Shown piece by piece: positions 4,028 through 32,285 of a stretch of 34,110 nucleotides of DNA. Each line of letters opens with the position of its first letter. Within the stretch, counting starts at the first letter, position 1. Under the pieces are notes generated by a model, which was not told the origin of the DNA, did not search any database, and saw nothing but the letters and a program-made list of their open reading frames with translations. Origin of the DNA: Thermoleophilaceae bacterium (GTDB taxonomy: Bacteria > Actinomycetota > Thermoleophilia > Solirubrobacterales > Thermoleophilaceae); the NCBI GenBank assembly GCA_036378175.1, contig DASUWY010000046.1, forward strand, positions 1-34,110, given 5' to 3'. The position numbers and the translations under genes were made by a program.

Positions 4028-5500
4028 TTGGCTGTAAGCGAGCATGCGGTGGTGGTGGTCGGAGGCGGTCCGACCGGGATGATGTTGGGCGCCGAACTGG
4101 CGCTCGCGAATGTGGATGTGGCGATCCTCGAGCGACGCACGGGGCCCGATCTCGAGTCCGTGCGCTCCGGCGGCCTCCTGTCACGGACGATCGAGGTGCT
4201 CGATCAGCGCGGAGTGGCCGACCGGTTCCTGTCGGAGGGGACGACGGTTCAGGTGTGGGGCGACTTCGCCGGCGTTCAGATGGGCATCAGCCACTTCCCC
4301 ACCCGCCACAACTACGTTCTCGGGCTCTGGCAGAACCACATCGAGCGCATCCTCGCCGGCTGGCTCGATGAGCTGCCCGTGACGATCTACCGCGGGCGCG
4401 ACGTGACCGGCTTCACGCAGGACGCCAGCGGTGTTGACGTCGAGCTCGCCGAAGGGGCGCCGCTCCGGGCCGAGTACATCGTCGGGTGCGACGGCGGACG
4501 CAGCCTGATCCGCAAGGCGGCGGGCATCGGCTTTCCAGGCTGGGACCCATCGACGAGCTCCCTGGTGGCCGAGGTGGAGATGGACGGGGAGCCCGAGATC
4601 GGCGTCCGCCGCGATGCCAAGGGCATCCACGGCATCGGCAGGCTCGAGGACGGGCGGTTCCGGCTCGTGATGAGAGAGGAGGAGCTGGGGCAGACCGAGC
4701 AGCCGACGCTCGAGGATCTACGCCGGCTGCTCGTGACCGTCTGGGGAACGGACTACGGGCTCCGCAGTGCCACCTCGATCTCCCGGTTCACGGATACGAG
4801 CCGGCAGGCGGAGTCGTATCGGAAGGGTCGCGTGCTGCTGGCGGGCGACGCCGCCCACGTTCATTCCCCGATGGGCGGCCAGGGCCTCGGCACCGGAGTG
4901 CAGGACGCGGTGAACCTGGGATGGAAGCTCGCCCAGGTGGTGAAGGGCATATCGCCGGACAGCCTGCTGGACAGCTACCACGCGGAGCGCCATGCGGTGG
5001 GCGCCCGCGTGCTGCAGACGACGATGGCGCTGAACGCCCTCGCGCGCCAGGAGGCTCGCGTGGACGCCCTGCGCGAGACCATCGCCGATCTCCTCACCGT
5101 CGAAGACGCCCGCACGCGGATGGCCGGGAGGCTCTCCGGCCTGGACATCCACTACGACCTCGGCGACGGGCACCCGCTCCTCGGGCGGCGCATGCCTGAT
5201 CTCGACCTCGTGACGGCCGACGGCACCGTGCGAATGTTCACCCTGCTGCACGAGGCGAAGCCGGTGCTCCTCAACTTCGGTCTGGCCGGCGAGGCCGACG
5301 TCGCGCCGTGGGCGGATCGGATGCACACGGTCGATGCCGAGTACAGCGGGGCGTGGGAGCTTCCGGTACTGGGCGAGGTCAGCGCTCCGAGCGCGGTGTT
5401 GATCCGACCCGACGGCTATGTGGCGTGGGTGGGCGAGCTCACCGACCCAGCGCTGCGGGATGCGCTCACCGCCTGGTTCGGCGCGGCGGCAGCGACGTAA
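4028..5500 (+). CDS. FAD-dependent aromatic-ring monooxygenase (PheA/TfdB-type, group A)
   Basis: 490 residues. Predicted to hydroxylate an aromatic or polyketide-like substrate using O2 and NAD(P)H with bound FAD. Visible motifs: dinucleotide-binding VVGGGPTG (residues 10-17), the DG motif GCDGGRS (about 153-159) and the GD motif LLAGDAAHVHSPMGGQG (about 269-285). The last ~110 residues look like the thioredoxin-like C-terminal domain found in phenol hydroxylase and rifampicin monooxygenase relatives. Start is TTG at 4028, supported by GGAGG at 4016-4020 with 7-base spacing. It lies on the opposite strand between comEC and comEA, interrupting an otherwise conserved pair. The substrate cannot be told from sequence; a xenobiotic or antibiotic-inactivating role is possible but unproven. 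Confidence 0.9.
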   Translation: MAVSEHAVVVVGGGPTGMMLGAELALANVDVAILERRTGPDLESVRSGGLLSRTIEVLDQRGVADRFLSEGTTVQVWGDFAGVQMGISHFPTRHNYVLGLWQNHIERILAGWLDELPVTIYRGRDVTGFTQDASGVDVELAEGAPLRAEYIVGCDGGRSLIRKAAGIGFPGWDPSTSSLVAEVEMDGEPEIGVRRDAKGIHGIGRLEDGRFRLVMREEELGQTEQPTLEDLRRLLVTVWGTDYGLRSATSISRFTDTSRQAESYRKGRVLLAGDAAHVHSPMGGQGLGTGVQDAVNLGWKLAQVVKGISPDSLLDSYHAERHAVGARVLQTTMALNALARQEARVDALRETIADLLTVEDARTRMAGRLSGLDIHYDLGDGHPLLGRRMPDLDLVTADGTVRMFTLLHEAKPVLLNFGLAGEADVAPWADRMHTVDAEYSGAWELPVLGEVSAPSAVLIRPDGYVAWVGELTDPALRDALTAWFGAAAAT

Positions 5501-5836: not shown

Positions 5837-6460
5837 TCATGGAACGAGCGCCTGCCGCAGGGCCTCGAAGCGCTTGTCGCCTATGCCGGAAACCTCCTTC
5901 AGCTCGTCGAGCGAGCGGAACCCGCCGTGCTGCTGGCGGTACTGGATGATCCGGCCGGCGAGCGCCGGGCCGATGCCGTCGAGCGTCTCGAGCTGCGCCT
6001 CCGTGGCCTGCGAGAGGCTGATGGGTCCGCCAGCCGCCGCGGCGCCCCCTCCCGCCCCTCCGCCGGCCGCTCCCACGCCGCCGACTCCGCCTGTGCCGCG
6101 CAGCGGCACGATCACCTGCTGCCCGTCGTGGAGCGGGGAGGCGAGATTCACCCCAGCCTCGTCGCCGCGGCGCGACACGCCGCCTGCGCGCTCGAGCGCC
6201 GCCGCCAGCCGCGACCCGGCCGGGACCTTGTAGAGGCCGGGGCGGCGCACCGCCCCGGCCACGTCGACCCACAGCTCGCGGGCCGGGGCGGGAGCCGCAG
6301 CCGCGGGCGCCCGTCCGCCGCCCGCAGGCCCAAGCGAGACCGAGGCCGCCGGCGCGCCACCTCCACCGCCGTGCGCGTGAAGTCGAAGCGCGATCGCCAC
6401 GACCAGCAGAGCGAACGCCGCCCATGCGACGAGCTTGCCCTTGTCGATGTCCTCGAGCAT
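5837..6460 (-). CDS. comEA: ComEA-like DNA-binding competence protein
   Basis: 207 residues. ComEA is the membrane-anchored DNA receptor of the transformation machinery that hands DNA to ComEC. The order is typical: short cytosolic start, one membrane helix (about 9-27, VAWAAFALLVVAIAL), a Gly/Ala/Pro-rich linker, an SLBB-type domain (LWVDVAGAVRRPGLYKVPAG through GQQVIVPL), a second Gly/Ala linker, and C-terminal double helix-hairpin-helix (LDGIGPALAGRIIQYR, LKEVSGIGDKRFEALRQAL). I chose ATG 6460; the open frame continues upstream but loses protein character. No clear Shine-Dalgarno. comEC, normally the next gene, is displaced about 2 kb away by two intervening genes. Confidence 0.92.
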   Translation of the reverse strand: MLEDIDKGKLVAWAAFALLVVAIALRLHAHGGGGGAPAASVSLGPAGGGRAPAAAAPAPARELWVDVAGAVRRPGLYKVPAGSRLAAALERAGGVSRRGDEAGVNLASPLHDGQQVIVPLRGTGGVGGVGAAGGGAGGGAAAAGGPISLSQATEAQLETLDGIGPALAGRIIQYRQQHGGFRSLDELKEVSGIGDKRFEALRQALVP

Positions 6461-20290: not shown

Positions 20291-20824
20291 TCATGAGAAA
20301 AGCCGCCCGTTGCGGGCGGCTTTTTCAGTGGAGCTAGTCGGGCTCGAACCGACGACCTCTGCCATGCCATGGCAGCGCTCTCCCAACTGAGCTATAGCCC
20401 CAAGCTCGTATGTCTCGGCCGAGTGTACCCCCGTCTTCTGGTTATTCAACGAGGGACTCAGACGCAAATGAATGGCCGATCTGCCAGCTACCAAGGATAT
20501 CGGCAGGAAGTAGCAGCTCCGTAGCTCGAGACAGCACGCCGCTACCGCGTCGATCTCGTCGGCCGAGTAGGTGGTTCGCACATATCCCGCGGGGGTGAGC
20601 CGACTTGTGGCGAGTTGGACCGACACGACAGCGCCACGCTTGACCGCCCACTTGCACTGCACGCGCAGCGGCCGTGACCCCACGTCGAAGATCAGGTCGT
20701 AGCGTCCGCCTTCCATCAGGGGTCGGTAAACCCCCATTCCCAAGCGCACGGCTTCGGCCGCGACGTTACAGTGCCCCTGACCCGCAACGAGGAGGAGAGA
20801 ATGGCCCGTTTCGTCTTGGTCCAC
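20291..20824 (-). CDS. PD-(D/E)XK homing-endonuclease-like gene reading into tRNA-Ala
   Basis: The frame resembles group I intron-associated PD-(D/E)XK endonucleases (I-Ssp6803I type): GRYDLIFD (catalytic Asp), RVQCKWA (Q-x-K motif), a Y-x-ADEIDAVAACC segment, and the NNQKTGVHSAETYEL end. Residues 1-141 (20824-20402) are non-tRNA sequence; the frame then enters tRNA-Ala at its first base without a stop and continues to TGA at 20291, reading the tRNA as AIAQLGER...GSSPTSS. The N-terminus is weak: GTG 20824 (or a start at 20887) would overlap the hydrolase gene and its ribosome site, and the first helix looks shortened, so the gene may be decaying. G+C over 20401-20520 is about 55 percent by count, far below neighbours (77 percent for 8761-8820), suggesting transfer. 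Confidence 0.7.
   Translation of the reverse strand: MDQDETGHSLLLVAGQGHCNVAAEAVRLGMGVYRPLMEGGRYDLIFDVGSRPLRVQCKWAVKRGAVVSVQLATSRLTPAGYVRTTYSADEIDAVAACCLELRSCYFLPISLVAGRSAIHLRLSPSLNNQKTGVHSAETYELGAIAQLGERCHGMAEVVGSSPTSSTEKAARNGRLFS
20302..20320. terminator. Bidirectional intrinsic terminator
   Basis: GCCGCCCG (20302-20309), loop TTG, CGGGCGGC (20313-20320): an 8-bp stem of G-C pairs, flanked by AAAA on the left and TTTTT (20321-20325) on the right. It can stop both the plus-strand CBS transcript and the minus-strand tRNA transcript. It is the only textbook intrinsic terminator I see in the window. Confidence 0.9.
20329..20401 (-). tRNA. tRNA-Ala (anticodon GGC)
   Basis: 73 bases, CCA not encoded. 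Acceptor GGGGCTA pairs with TAGCTCC including the G3-U70 pair that marks alanine tRNAs. D arm GCTC...GAGC, anticodon stem CTGCC/GGCAG with loop ATGGCAT (anticodon GGC), T arm GTCGG TTCGAGC CCGAC, discriminator A. There is no intron. Its first base (20401) directly follows the last non-tRNA codon of the endonuclease-like gene. A terminator follows 8 bases after its 3' end. Confidence 0.97.
20422..20449 (-). promoter_or_regulatory. Candidate tRNA-Ala promoter inside the endonuclease frame
   Basis: On the minus strand TTGAAT (20449-20444), a 16-base spacer and TACACT (20427-20422). Transcription would start near 20415, about 14 bases before the tRNA. The same bases encode the LNNQKTGVHS residues of the endonuclease-like protein. 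Confidence 0.5.
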
Positions 20825-29567: not shown

Positions 29568-29828
29568 TTATTCGGACGCGCTGGGCGCTACGGAGATGAC
29601 GCGGCCGCGGCGGCCGGTCTTGAACTCGACGATGCCCGGGCGCTTGGCGAAGATCGTGTCGTCCTTGCCGATGCCCACGCCGTCGCCGGGGTGGAAGCGG
29701 GTGCCGCGCTGGCGGACGATGATCTCGCCGCCGGTGACGGTCTGGCCGGCGAACACCTTCACGCCCAACCGCTGGGCGGCCGAGTCGCGGCCGTTGCGGC
29801 TTGAGCCGAGTCCCTTCTTATGAGCCAT
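29568..29828 (-). CDS. rpmA: 50S ribosomal protein L27
   Basis: 86 residues. L27 reaches the peptidyl-transferase centre. [16 protein letters not shown] and [24 protein letters not shown] are diagnostic; there is no cleaved N-terminal extension as in Firmicutes. ATG 29828 lies 11 bases inside the end of rplU, preceded by an AAGGAGG ribosome site, so translation is coupled. Confidence 0.97.
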
Positions 29829-30264
29829 CCTCGGCCTCCTTCTTCGTCTGGCGCGGCTTCGACGCCCGCGGCTTGGCGGCAGCCTTGGGCTTGGCCTCGG
29901 CCTTCGGGGTCTCCTCGGCCTCCTTCGCCTCCTTCACGGCGGAAGAGGCGCGCTGGAGAAGCTTGATGTCCTTGATCTCGATGCGAGTGAGGTCCGCCCG
30001 CGCCCCGCTGCGGCGCTTGTAGCCGCGCTTGGGCTTGAACTTGAGCACGTGAACCTTCGGCCCGCGCTCGTGCCCGCTCACGACCGCCTCGACCTTGATC
30101 TTCCCGAGGTCGTTGCCCTCGAACACCGTGTCCTTGCCATCGGCGAGCAGCAGCGGATCGAGGGTGAGCTTGTCGCCCTCGGAAGCGCTCATGCGATCAA
30201 CCACCAACGATTGACCCTTTTCCACGCGGTACTGCTTACCGCCGACTTTGACTACTGCGTACAT
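29818..30264 (-). CDS. rplU: 50S ribosomal protein L21 with charged C-terminal extension
   Basis: 148 residues. The first ~103 are canonical L21 ([40 protein letters not shown], and the GYKRR segment ending LTRIEIKDI). A further ~45 residues rich in Lys, Ala and Glu follow, longer than usual; such tails occur in high-G+C bacteria. I chose ATG 30264 with GAGG 8 bases upstream over an extension to 30279. The 3' end overlaps rpmA. A stem-loop and promoter lie just upstream. Confidence 0.95.
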
Positions 30265-30308: not shown

Positions 30309-30314
30309 AGTGTA
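30309..30314 (-). promoter_or_regulatory. Candidate rplU -10 box
   Basis: TACACT on the minus strand, the same hexamer as in the tRNA-Ala promoter candidate. Predicted start near 30302, a 38-base leader. No good -35. Confidence 0.4.
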
Positions 30315-30324
30315 GCCAACGCTA

Positions 30325-30380
30325 GGGCGTAGGGCATGGGGCATAGAACGACCTCTTCCGATGCCCTATGCCCTATGCCC
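30325..30380. repeat. Inverted repeat made of three 7-base units per arm
   Basis: Arm 30325-30344 (GGGCGTA GGGCATG GGGCAT) pairs with 30361-30380 (ATGCCCTATGCCCTATGCCC) over 20 positions around a 16-base loop. The two imperfect positions are G-U wobbles in plus-strand RNA but A-C mismatches in minus-strand RNA. It lies in the rng-rplU spacer, directly after the rng stop and over the expected -35 area of rplU. No poly-U follows, so it is not a classical terminator. Confidence 0.75.
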
Positions 30381-30383
30381 CAA

Positions 30384-32285
30384 CTACTCTGACGCCGCCT
30401 TAGTCCGCCGCCCCCGTCCGCCACGCCGGCCGCGGCTGCGCTTCGGCTTCTCCTCCTCCGCCTGCGGGGCGTCGGCGCCGTTGTCAACGATGGTGGCGGA
30501 GGCCGCGGATCGCGTGACTGCCTCAATCCGCACAAGCCTCTTCTCCCCGAGATGCCTCACTCCGCGCGCCACTGAGATCACGTAGCCGTCCACCTTCGCC
30601 ACGGCGTCGTCCTCGTTGTACATGTGAGGTTCCTCGATGGTCACGAGCACCTCCTCGCCCTCGCGGAAGGGGAGCGCGCGCTCCTCGACCTCGGAGCGGC
30701 TGCCCTCGAGGGTGACGGCGAAGTGGTCGATCGGCAGCCCCTCCGAGCCCTCGAAGTGGAAGTGCTTGTGCACCTCCTCCTCGATCTCGAGGAGCGGCGG
30801 GCGCCCGGGGCCGCTGAGCAGCACGCCCGACACCCGCGGGTTGAGCTGGATCAGGAAGGCCTCCACGTCCGGCTTCTCGGCCGCCAGCTCGCGCAGCTTG
30901 CGCTCCACCTCGATCGCGACCGTCTCCTCGGACAGCACAACCCCGTCGCCGTGGCAGGTGGGGCACGGCTTGGTGAGGATCTCGCGCACGCCGTCGGTCA
31001 CGTTCTGGCGGGTCATCTCCACGAGCCCGAGCGGCGAGATCTCCATCACGTAGGTCTTGGTGCGGTCCTCGTCGAGCGCCTTGCGCAGCGTCTTCAGCAC
31101 CGCGTCGCGGTTGCGCGCCCGCGCCATGTCGATGAAGTCGATGACGATGATGCCGCCGATGTCCCGCAGCCTGAGCTGGCGCACGACCTCCTCGGCCGCC
31201 TCGAGGTTCGTCTTCGAGATCGTGTCCTCGAGCCGCGCGCCCTTGCCGCGCCCGGTGAAGGAGCCCGAGTTGATGTCGATCACCGTCATCGCCTCGGCGT
31301 AGTCGATGATCAGGTAGCCGCCGCTCGGCAGGTCCACGCGCCGGCTCAAAGTGGACTTCATCACCTCGTCGATGCCGAACTTCTCGAACAGCGGCACCTT
31401 CCCGTCCTCATACAGCTCGACCCGCGCGACGAGCTCCGGCGCGGTGCGCGTGAGGAACGAGACCAGGCGCTGGTGCGCCTTCTCGTCGTCCACGAGCGCG
31501 TCCTCCAGCTGCGAGGAGAAGATGTCGCGCACCACGCGCACGGCGAGGTCGGCCTCCTGGAAGACCATCGCCGGGGCGACCGTCTCCTTGGCGCGCTTCT
31601 GAAGGATCTCGTACAGCTTGTGGAGGTACTTGATCTCGCGCTCGAAGTCGGCGCGGTCGGCCCCCCGGGCGGCGGTACGGATGATCGCGCCGCCCTTGCC
31701 GAGGTCGAGCTTCGAGGCCTGCTTGCGCAGCCGGTCCCGCTCCTTGTCCTCGAGCCGGCGCGACACGCCCACGCCCTCGCCCTGAGGCACGTATACGAGG
31801 TAGCGCCCTGCGATGGAGAGCTGCATCGTGAGGCGCGCGCCCTTCGTCTTCAGCGGGTCCTTCATCACCTGGACGACGATCTCCTGGCCCGGCTTGAGCA
31901 GCTCGGTGATCCGCTGCCCCTTGCCGCCGCGGCCGCGGCGCGCGACCTCCACGCCCGGCATCACGATGTCGTCCGCGTGCAGGAACCCGTTCTTGTCGAG
32001 GCCGATGTCGACGAAGGCCGCCTCGAGGCCGGGCAGGACGTTGTCGACCTTGCCCTTGTAGATGTTCCCGACTATCGAGCGGCTGCCACGGCGCTCTATG
32101 TAGAGCTCTGCGACATGGCTGCCGTTCAGCTCCTCCCTCTTCTGGGAGGCCTTCCCGCCGCCCCGGCGCCTGCCGGACGGCTTCTTATCACCCGATTCAC
32201 CCCGAGGTGAGGGCTCCCCCTCCGCCTCCAAGATGGCGACTCGGGTTTCGCCACGGTCCACCGTGACGAGTACTCGTTTTCTCAA
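30384..32285 (-). CDS. rng: Ribonuclease E/G
   Basis: 633 residues. Endoribonuclease for mRNA turnover and rRNA maturation. Visible: split S1 domain (RKRVLVTVDRGETRVAILEA then SIVGNIYKGKVDNVLPGLEA) with about 33 disordered Lys/Gly/Arg residues inserted between, metal-binding Asp residues in VIDINSGSF (near 335) and IVIDFIDM (near 381), and the Zn-link CPTCHGDG (near 441). The C-terminus ends in a short basic tail (RSRGRRGGRGRRTKAASE). TTG start at 32285 is supported by AGAGGA with 6-base spacing. Only 9 bases separate it from rodA. It lies upstream of rplU as in many actinobacteria. Confidence 0.94.
   Translation of the reverse strand: MRKRVLVTVDRGETRVAILEAEGEPSPRGESGDKKPSGRRRGGGKASQKREELNGSHVAELYIERRGSRSIVGNIYKGKVDNVLPGLEAAFVDIGLDKNGFLHADDIVMPGVEVARRGRGGKGQRITELLKPGQEIVVQVMKDPLKTKGARLTMQLSIAGRYLVYVPQGEGVGVSRRLEDKERDRLRKQASKLDLGKGGAIIRTAARGADRADFEREIKYLHKLYEILQKRAKETVAPAMVFQEADLAVRVVRDIFSSQLEDALVDDEKAHQRLVSFLTRTAPELVARVELYEDGKVPLFEKFGIDEVMKSTLSRRVDLPSGGYLIIDYAEAMTVIDINSGSFTGRGKGARLEDTISKTNLEAAEEVVRQLRLRDIGGIIVIDFIDMARARNRDAVLKTLRKALDEDRTKTYVMEISPLGLVEMTRQNVTDGVREILTKPCPTCHGDGVVLSEETVAIEVERKLRELAAEKPDVEAFLIQLNPRVSGVLLSGPGRPPLLEIEEEVHKHFHFEGSEGLPIDHFAVTLEGSRSEVEERALPFREGEEVLVTIEEPHMYNEDDAVAKVDGYVISVARGVRHLGEKRLVRIEAVTRSAASATIVDNGADAPQAEEEKPKRSRGRRGGRGRRTKAASE

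What the first reader, a model, noticed from the sequence alone, without database searches (positions are those of the whole stretch)
30325..30380. Heptad-based inverted repeat between rng and rplU
Two arms each made of three 7-base units (GGGCATA-like and TGCCCTA-like) pair over 20 positions. The two imperfect pairs are wobbles only in plus-strand RNA, antisense to the genes, which hints that a plus-strand RNA or the DNA itself is the conserved object. It touches the stop of an RNase gene and overlaps the rplU promoter area.
Basis: partly seen in the sequence, partly recalled or inferred. Interest (0 to 1): 0.55.

Follow-up and report, generated by a model that had tools for sequence, protein, structure and literature searches.

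The report
Hairpin of 7-base repeats after rng
The hairpin after an RNase gene is one of many scattered 7-base repeat arrays in this bacterium and its nearest held relative; most of those sampled sit at gene ends, and their sequence changes faster than their 7-base rhythm and layout.

Summary
In detail: 30321-30345 and 30361-30384 are three GGGCATA-like heptads facing three TATGCCC-like ones, directly after the stop of an RNase E/G gene and 6 nt upstream of the predicted rplU -10. It is not single-copy. The genome holds 44 exact copies of the two-heptad word in 23 arrays (reversed control 0), plus other heptads; the only other held genome of the genus has its own set. Of 49 extragenic arrays in the sampled stretches of both genomes, 36 lie within 15 nt of a stop codon and none within 15 nt of a start. 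At rng-rplU the sister species has a different heptad hairpin in the same place. At 25 sites with an array in both genomes, hairpin-or-direct layout agrees at 23 while the main unit differs at 21; at four of six hairpin sites both arms changed together. But of 19 sites chosen from the sister genome only 8 keep the array here, and 1 of 4 hairpins. Nearest known: heptameric 3'-end repeats of Xanthomonas/Nostoc. Most likely: arrays made by slippage, arms matched by template switching, tolerated after stop codons. Wobbles show no strand bias, so the antisense-RNA hint fails. Function untested.

The parts
30321..30345 (.). left arm: three heptads (GGGCGTA GGGCATG GGGCATA on + strand) with GCTA at the base
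30346..30360 (.). loop and apical part of the hairpin
   Evidence: fold
30361..30384 (.). right arm: ATGCCCTATGCCCTATGCCC + CAAC; two exact genome-wide heptad words at 30361-30373 and 30368-30380
30384..32285 (-). Rne/Rng family ribonuclease gene; stop codon TAG 30386-30384
   Evidence: NCBIfam TIGR00757 above cut-off, (my codon-usage caller puts the start at 32231)
30309..30314 (-). -10-like hexamer TACACT of rplU, of a form shared by relatives
   Evidence: the strict consensus scan found none
29818..30264 (-). rplU (50S ribosomal protein L21)
   Evidence: TIGR00061
29568..29828 (-). rpmA (50S ribosomal protein L27)
   Evidence: TIGR00062

Best explanation
The feature is one member of a family of dispersed heptanucleotide arrays (simple sequence repeats with a 7-bp period) seen in both held genomes of this genus. 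They sit mainly directly after stop codons with the G-rich strand as the mRNA sense strand; here two arrays face each other and form a hairpin. Shown: copy number, 7-bp period, place, folding, and a different unit in the two species at the same site. Inferred: arrays grow and are homogenised by replication slippage in 7-bp steps, so a mutated unit can take over an arm; in inverted arrays template switching within the hairpin copies one arm onto the other, so both arms change together; arrays survive where they do least harm, after stop codons, and stop-free units can also survive inside genes. At this site the hairpin probably acts at most as a weak 3'-end structure of the rng transcript that separates it from the rplU promoter.
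For: 44 exact copies of the two-heptad word, reversed control 0. In 400 kb of own genome at offsets chosen without looking, period 7 gives 6 arrays and periods 5, 8, 10, 11 give 0; periods 6 and 9 give 10 and 7. 36 of 49 extragenic arrays within 15 nt of a stop (null 11.6%, binomial 1e-23), 0 of 49 within 15 nt of a start; G-rich sense 31 of 39. 4 of 49 lie between divergent genes. Of 61 arrays 12 are inside called genes, and by reading the list, 11 of the 12 carry no stop codon in any frame of the gene strand (exception L138). The sister species has a heptad hairpin of other sequence at the same place, identity 33 of 53, as for shuffled sequence. Of 22 G000 sites bracketed in G001, 17 keep the period. 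At 25 sites with an array in both, layout agrees at 23, the main unit differs at 21 and no unit is shared at 15. Both arms changed at 4 of 6 forward hairpin sites: pairing score 16-20 within a species, 4-9 across species. Mosaic arrays such as L032:4139-4230 mix units two substitutions apart. Template switching is described as a way to make and keep hairpin stems (abstract and outline of PMC8794818).
Against: In the reverse set, chosen from G001, only 8 of 19 sites keep the period at the same threshold, and only 1 of 4 G001 heptad hairpins has a heptad hairpin in G000 (at L135 the G000 site has other stems). One site is direct in G001 and inverted in G000 (L137:5201). Many forward sites were chosen by a word that G001 lacks, so 'the unit differs' is partly built in there; in the reverse set it differs at 5 of 8. 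At L038 and L046 arms still pair across species. Two genomes cannot order the changes, and no intermediate state of the rng-rplU array was seen. Slippage alone does not explain why 7 and not 5, 8 or 10. Polarity is flipped at rng-rplU (on the gene strand, G-rich arm first in G000, C-rich arm first in G001), which fresh insertion explains more easily than stepwise change.
Confidence: 0.6

Rival explanations
1. Selected RNA structure: the array is kept at the rng 3' end because the hairpin terminates or protects the transcript; sequence is free, pairing is not.
For: Fold energies -42.7 and -43.1 kcal/mol in the two species' sense RNA. Hairpin present in both with both arms different. Hairpin begins at the stop codon and ends 6 nt before the -10-like element. 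Of the other 28 relatives' rplU upstream stretches (160 nt), three reach stem score 15 or more without heptads: L155, L158, L167.
Against: No T run after the stem. Most paired arrays are direct, with stem score under 15. At L042:10514 a hairpin followed by TTTT comes after the array in both species (read). In several relatives, such as L153, L168, L171 and L173, the -10-like element lies at or inside the rng end. Three of four G001 heptad hairpins have no heptad hairpin in G000.
Confidence: 0.25
2. Mobile hairpin element (REP-like) that inserts after stop codons and is replaced by fresh insertion.
For: Presence/absence pairs: L040:599 is a 26-nt insertion; L036, L049 and L131 are present in one genome only. 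Polarity is flipped at rng-rplU.
Against: No Y1 (RAYT) transposase match in G000 or G001 (G001 is 88% complete). Unit sequences vary along one array. No target duplication is apparent in the two insertion alignments I read, L040:602 and L133:6509. Many sites keep place and layout.
Confidence: 0.1
3. Operator repeats bound by a DNA- or RNA-binding protein.
For: Dispersed short repeats at defined gene positions.
Against: The unit differs within and between the two genomes, at 21 of 25 matching sites.
Confidence: 0.04
4. Plus-strand regulatory RNA or RNase E/G autoregulatory target.
For: Two wobbles in plus-strand RNA.
Against: No clear strand bias over 12 hairpins, 12 to 15; the same heptads lie by many other genes; no Rfam match here at gathering scores; sequence not conserved.
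Confidence: 0.03

Closest known systems
GGGAATC / GGGGA(C/T)T heptameric repeats of Xanthomonas and Nostoc/Anabaena (PMC4692102; passages and sections 13 and 16 read)
   Same: 7-nt G-rich unit, dispersed, mostly intergenic, often within 50 bp after stop codons on the coding strand and overlapping stops, under-represented between divergent genes, inverted pairs (70 in Xcc), majority between the same genes in two related species with variation in length and sequence, function unknown.
   Different: That study followed one motif per species and stresses G-quadruplex capacity. Here several units occur in one genome, the main unit differs between sister species at matching sites, and the focal array lacks four G runs on either strand. 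Other phylum.
TAACTGA repeats of marine Beggiatoaceae (PMC4679880; abstract, introduction and section 9 read)
   Same: Dispersed intergenic heptanucleotide direct repeats.
   Different: Mostly just upstream of start codons, one unit, a single indirect repeat.
Heptanucleotide repeats building the P6b stem of the Nostoc trnL intron (PMC4476775; abstract and passages read)
   Same: 7-nt repeats keep a stem while the motif class (TDNGATT or NNTGAGT) is replaced as a whole.
   Different: A single group I intron locus, not dispersed 3' ends.
Heptanucleotide long simple sequence repeats (Mrazek et al. 2007, seen only as cited in PMC4679880 and PMC4692102)
   Same: Heptanucleotides the most abundant class in most genomes; polymerase-footprint slippage proposed.
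   Different: That paper was not read here; whether it covers this lineage is unknown.

Membership tests
Xanthomonas/Nostoc-type heptameric 3'-end repeats | tandem units of 7 nt in many dispersed places | tested here: met
Xanthomonas/Nostoc-type heptameric 3'-end repeats | close after stop codons, G-rich strand as coding strand | tested here: met
   36 of 49 within 15 nt; G-rich sense 31 of 39
Xanthomonas/Nostoc-type heptameric 3'-end repeats | some sites are inverted pairs | tested here: met
Xanthomonas/Nostoc-type heptameric 3'-end repeats | unit GGGAATC or GGGGAYT | tested here: not met
   several units, none of these among the main units listed
Xanthomonas/Nostoc-type heptameric 3'-end repeats | four G runs able to form a quadruplex | tested here: not met
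   focal array has three runs of GGG or more per strand; longer arrays such as L042:3978 have more
Intrinsic terminator | G+C-rich hairpin followed by a T run | tested here: not met
   hairpin met, T run not
REP elements with RAYT | Y1 (RAYT) transposase in the genome | tested here: not met
   PF01797 no match in G000 and G001; 5 of 14 control genomes ring. G001 is 88% complete.
Known structured RNA | Rfam match at the feature | tested here: not met
   only a tRNA at 20329-20401 reaches a gathering score in the window

The most novel reading that the evidence does not exclude
In this genus the object kept at a site is not a sequence but a 7-bp rhythm and its hairpin-or-direct layout. The unit is rewritten in concert, in both arms, between sister species, by an active copying process (slippage plus template switching, or an unknown array-writing enzyme). 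If so, compensatory change in such hairpins is mutational and not proof of selected RNA structure.
Probability: 0.3. Interest if true: 0.75.

Novelty: new variant of a known kind. Interest (0 to 1): 0.5.

Why it matters
Heptamer arrays after stop codons are described in Xanthomonas and Nostoc and unexplained. Here is an unrelated lineage with the same period, place and orientation but many units, and two close species in which the unit at matching places usually differs while period and layout often stay. That makes two questions testable: why seven, and whether co-varying arms arise by mutation rather than by selection on RNA.

Tried and rejected
Antisense RNA reading: rejected on folding of both strands and wobble counts. 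Rfam: nothing here. Canonical promoter or terminator: none by consensus scan; the -10 rests on comparison. RAYT/REP: rejected. G-quadruplex at this site: too few G runs. A loop motif GCTGTTCC that I thought recurrent is no more common than its reversed control. Exact GGGCATA-type words in other relatives: 0 of 60. A degenerate heptad pattern gives 88 matches in G000 (control 21) and 58 in G001 (control 0). In the other 59 genomes it gives 0 to 4 each, much like the control, apart from one long GGTCGGC array in G045 (32 matches) and G035 with 14 to 3; units outside that pattern were not sought there. None of the 28 other relatives' rplU upstream stretches reaches 12 of 14 at lag 7 (best 11, L162). 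Literature: eight searches; only named Thermoleophilia, and its two listed papers (listing seen only) are, by title, not about such arrays. Only the held open library was searched.

Limits: genes were called by my own codon-usage script, so stops are firm but starts approximate. The 61 arrays come mostly from stretches chosen because they hold arrays, and nearby pieces of one site can count twice (L036). The null for stop distance uses G000 gaps only. The 400-kb sample lies on contigs already known to me. Site pairs: 22 forward of 26 tried (not bracketed: L041, L044:3830, L045, L043), after 4 of 24 search pieces found no hit in G001; 19 reverse of 21 tried (not bracketed: L141, L149:4414). L038, L039 and L040:4208 were found because both genomes had arrays there, so they are biased; without them and L040:599, 14 of 18 forward sites keep the period. 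Control lags reach at most 9 of 14 in the forward set but 10 in one long reverse stretch, L135. The G001 'hairpin' without partner at L048 may be another stem in a 282-nt stretch. By eye I had seen an inverted repeat after rng in L162; it scores only 12, so I do not use it. Weak extra hits were not used.

Full report
What is there. Between the stop of an Rne/Rng-family ribonuclease gene and rplU-rpmA the window has GCTA GGGCGTA GGGCATG GGGCATA, a loop, and ATGCCCTATGCCCTATGCCCCAAC. The best stem runs from 30321 to 30384 and starts at the last base of the stop codon. Both strands fold at about -42.5 kcal/mol, far below shuffles. The inverted repeat is confirmed as described.

It is not alone. 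The word ATGCCCTATGCCC occurs 44 times in the 4.29-Mb genome, 22 on each strand, in 23 separate arrays by my grouping, and its reversed form never. None of 60 relatives has it. Yet the one other held genome of the genus has its own heptads, chiefly GGTCATA, GGTCGGA, GGTCAGA and GGGCACT. Own-genome arrays also include GGTCGCA, GGTCGGA, GGTCATA and GGGCGGA. In 400 kb of own genome taken at offsets chosen without looking, lag-7 repeats occur 6 times and lags 5, 8, 10 and 11 never; lags 6 and 9, multiples of three, occur 10 and 7 times. The lineage is Solirubrobacterales/Thermoleophilaceae by its RNase relatives (best identity 72%).

Where they sit. With genes called by codon usage, 49 of 61 arrays are extragenic. 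Of these, 36 lie within 15 nt of a stop codon, where 11.6% would by random placement; none lies within 15 nt of a start; the G-rich strand is the sense strand in 31 of 39 that could be assigned; 4 lie between divergent genes. Part of this is mechanical: a run of units such as TAGGGCA carries TAG in every frame. At L039 the stop codon of the G000 gene lies in the array, while G001 has its own TAA just before. Intragenic arrays use units without stops in 11 of 12 cases (read).

What happens between species. At rng-rplU the sister species, about 88% identical around, keeps the stop codon and the sequence GCGTTGGCTACACT, but between them has AAGTGCCCAGCGCCCAGTGGCCAG, a loop, and CTGGGCACCGGGTACTGGGCACTT. 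This is again three heptads facing three heptads, of other sequence and opposite polarity. Identity with the G000 array is 33 of 53, as for shuffled sequence. The other 28 relatives' loci show no lag-7 array there (best 11 of 14); in several the -10-like element lies at or inside the rng end.

I then paired sites in both directions. Of 22 G000 sites bracketed in G001, 17 keep a 7-bp period (12 of 14 or more at lag 7; control lags at most 9). Of 19 G001 sites bracketed in G000, 8 do, and a few more have a shorter or weaker array. All six G000 forward hairpin sites are hairpins in G001, with one G001 stem among the other 16. In the reverse set only one of four G001 heptad hairpins is a heptad hairpin in G000, and one site is direct in G001 but inverted in G000. 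Over the 25 sites with an array in both, layout agrees at 23 (7 with a stem, 16 without; Fisher 1e-4), the main unit differs at 21, and at 15 no unit is shared. Many forward sites were picked by a word that G001 lacks, so part of that difference is built in; in the reverse set the main unit differs at 5 of 8. At four of the six forward hairpin sites (L042:3956, L044:9506, L047 and the window) both arms changed: they pair with scores 16-20 within a species and 4-9 across species. At L038 and L046 the change is smaller and cross pairing remains good.

How it most likely works. Slippage in 7-bp steps spreads a changed unit along an arm, and template switching in the hairpin carries it to the other arm, as described for RNA stems (PMC8794818, abstract and outline). 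Selection removes arrays from coding sequence and promoters, leaving them after stops. This is inference; the flip of polarity at rng-rplU fits fresh insertion better. A 3'-end role of the rng hairpin is possible but not needed; there is no T run.

Two wobbles on one strand are weak evidence, and over 12 hairpins the count is 12 sense to 15 antisense.

Known relatives. The Xanthomonas GGGAATC repeats share unit length, place, strand and inverted pairs, and their role is unknown (PMC4692102, passages and sections 13 and 16). The replaced heptad motif in the Nostoc trnL stem is the best parallel for unit replacement with a kept stem (PMC4476775, passages). I judge this a new variant of that kind.

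Noticed in passing
30309-30314 (-) and loci L151-L180: A -10-like element [CG]TA[GAC]A[AC]T upstream of rplU is found in 23 of 30 loci, in several of them inside or at the end of rng.
   Followed up: partly
L143:9242-9297 (G001): An AGTGACT-type heptad hairpin fills the gap between two convergent genes, reaching into both gene ends; no such array at the G000 site.
   Followed up: partly
L070:2105-2147, 4967-4992, 6308-6371: An Acidobacteria MAG has 7-bp arrays of quite other units (GGGAACT, GCTGATA, CAAGTCG), so the 7-bp habit recurs in another phylum.
   Followed up: no
G045:C84:1143-1390: A long array of about 30 GGTCGGC heptads in a same-order relative otherwise without such matches.
   Followed up: no
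L042:10514-10544 and L210: An array of different unit sits between a stop codon and a hairpin followed by TTTT in both species, so there the array is probably not the terminator.
   Followed up: partly
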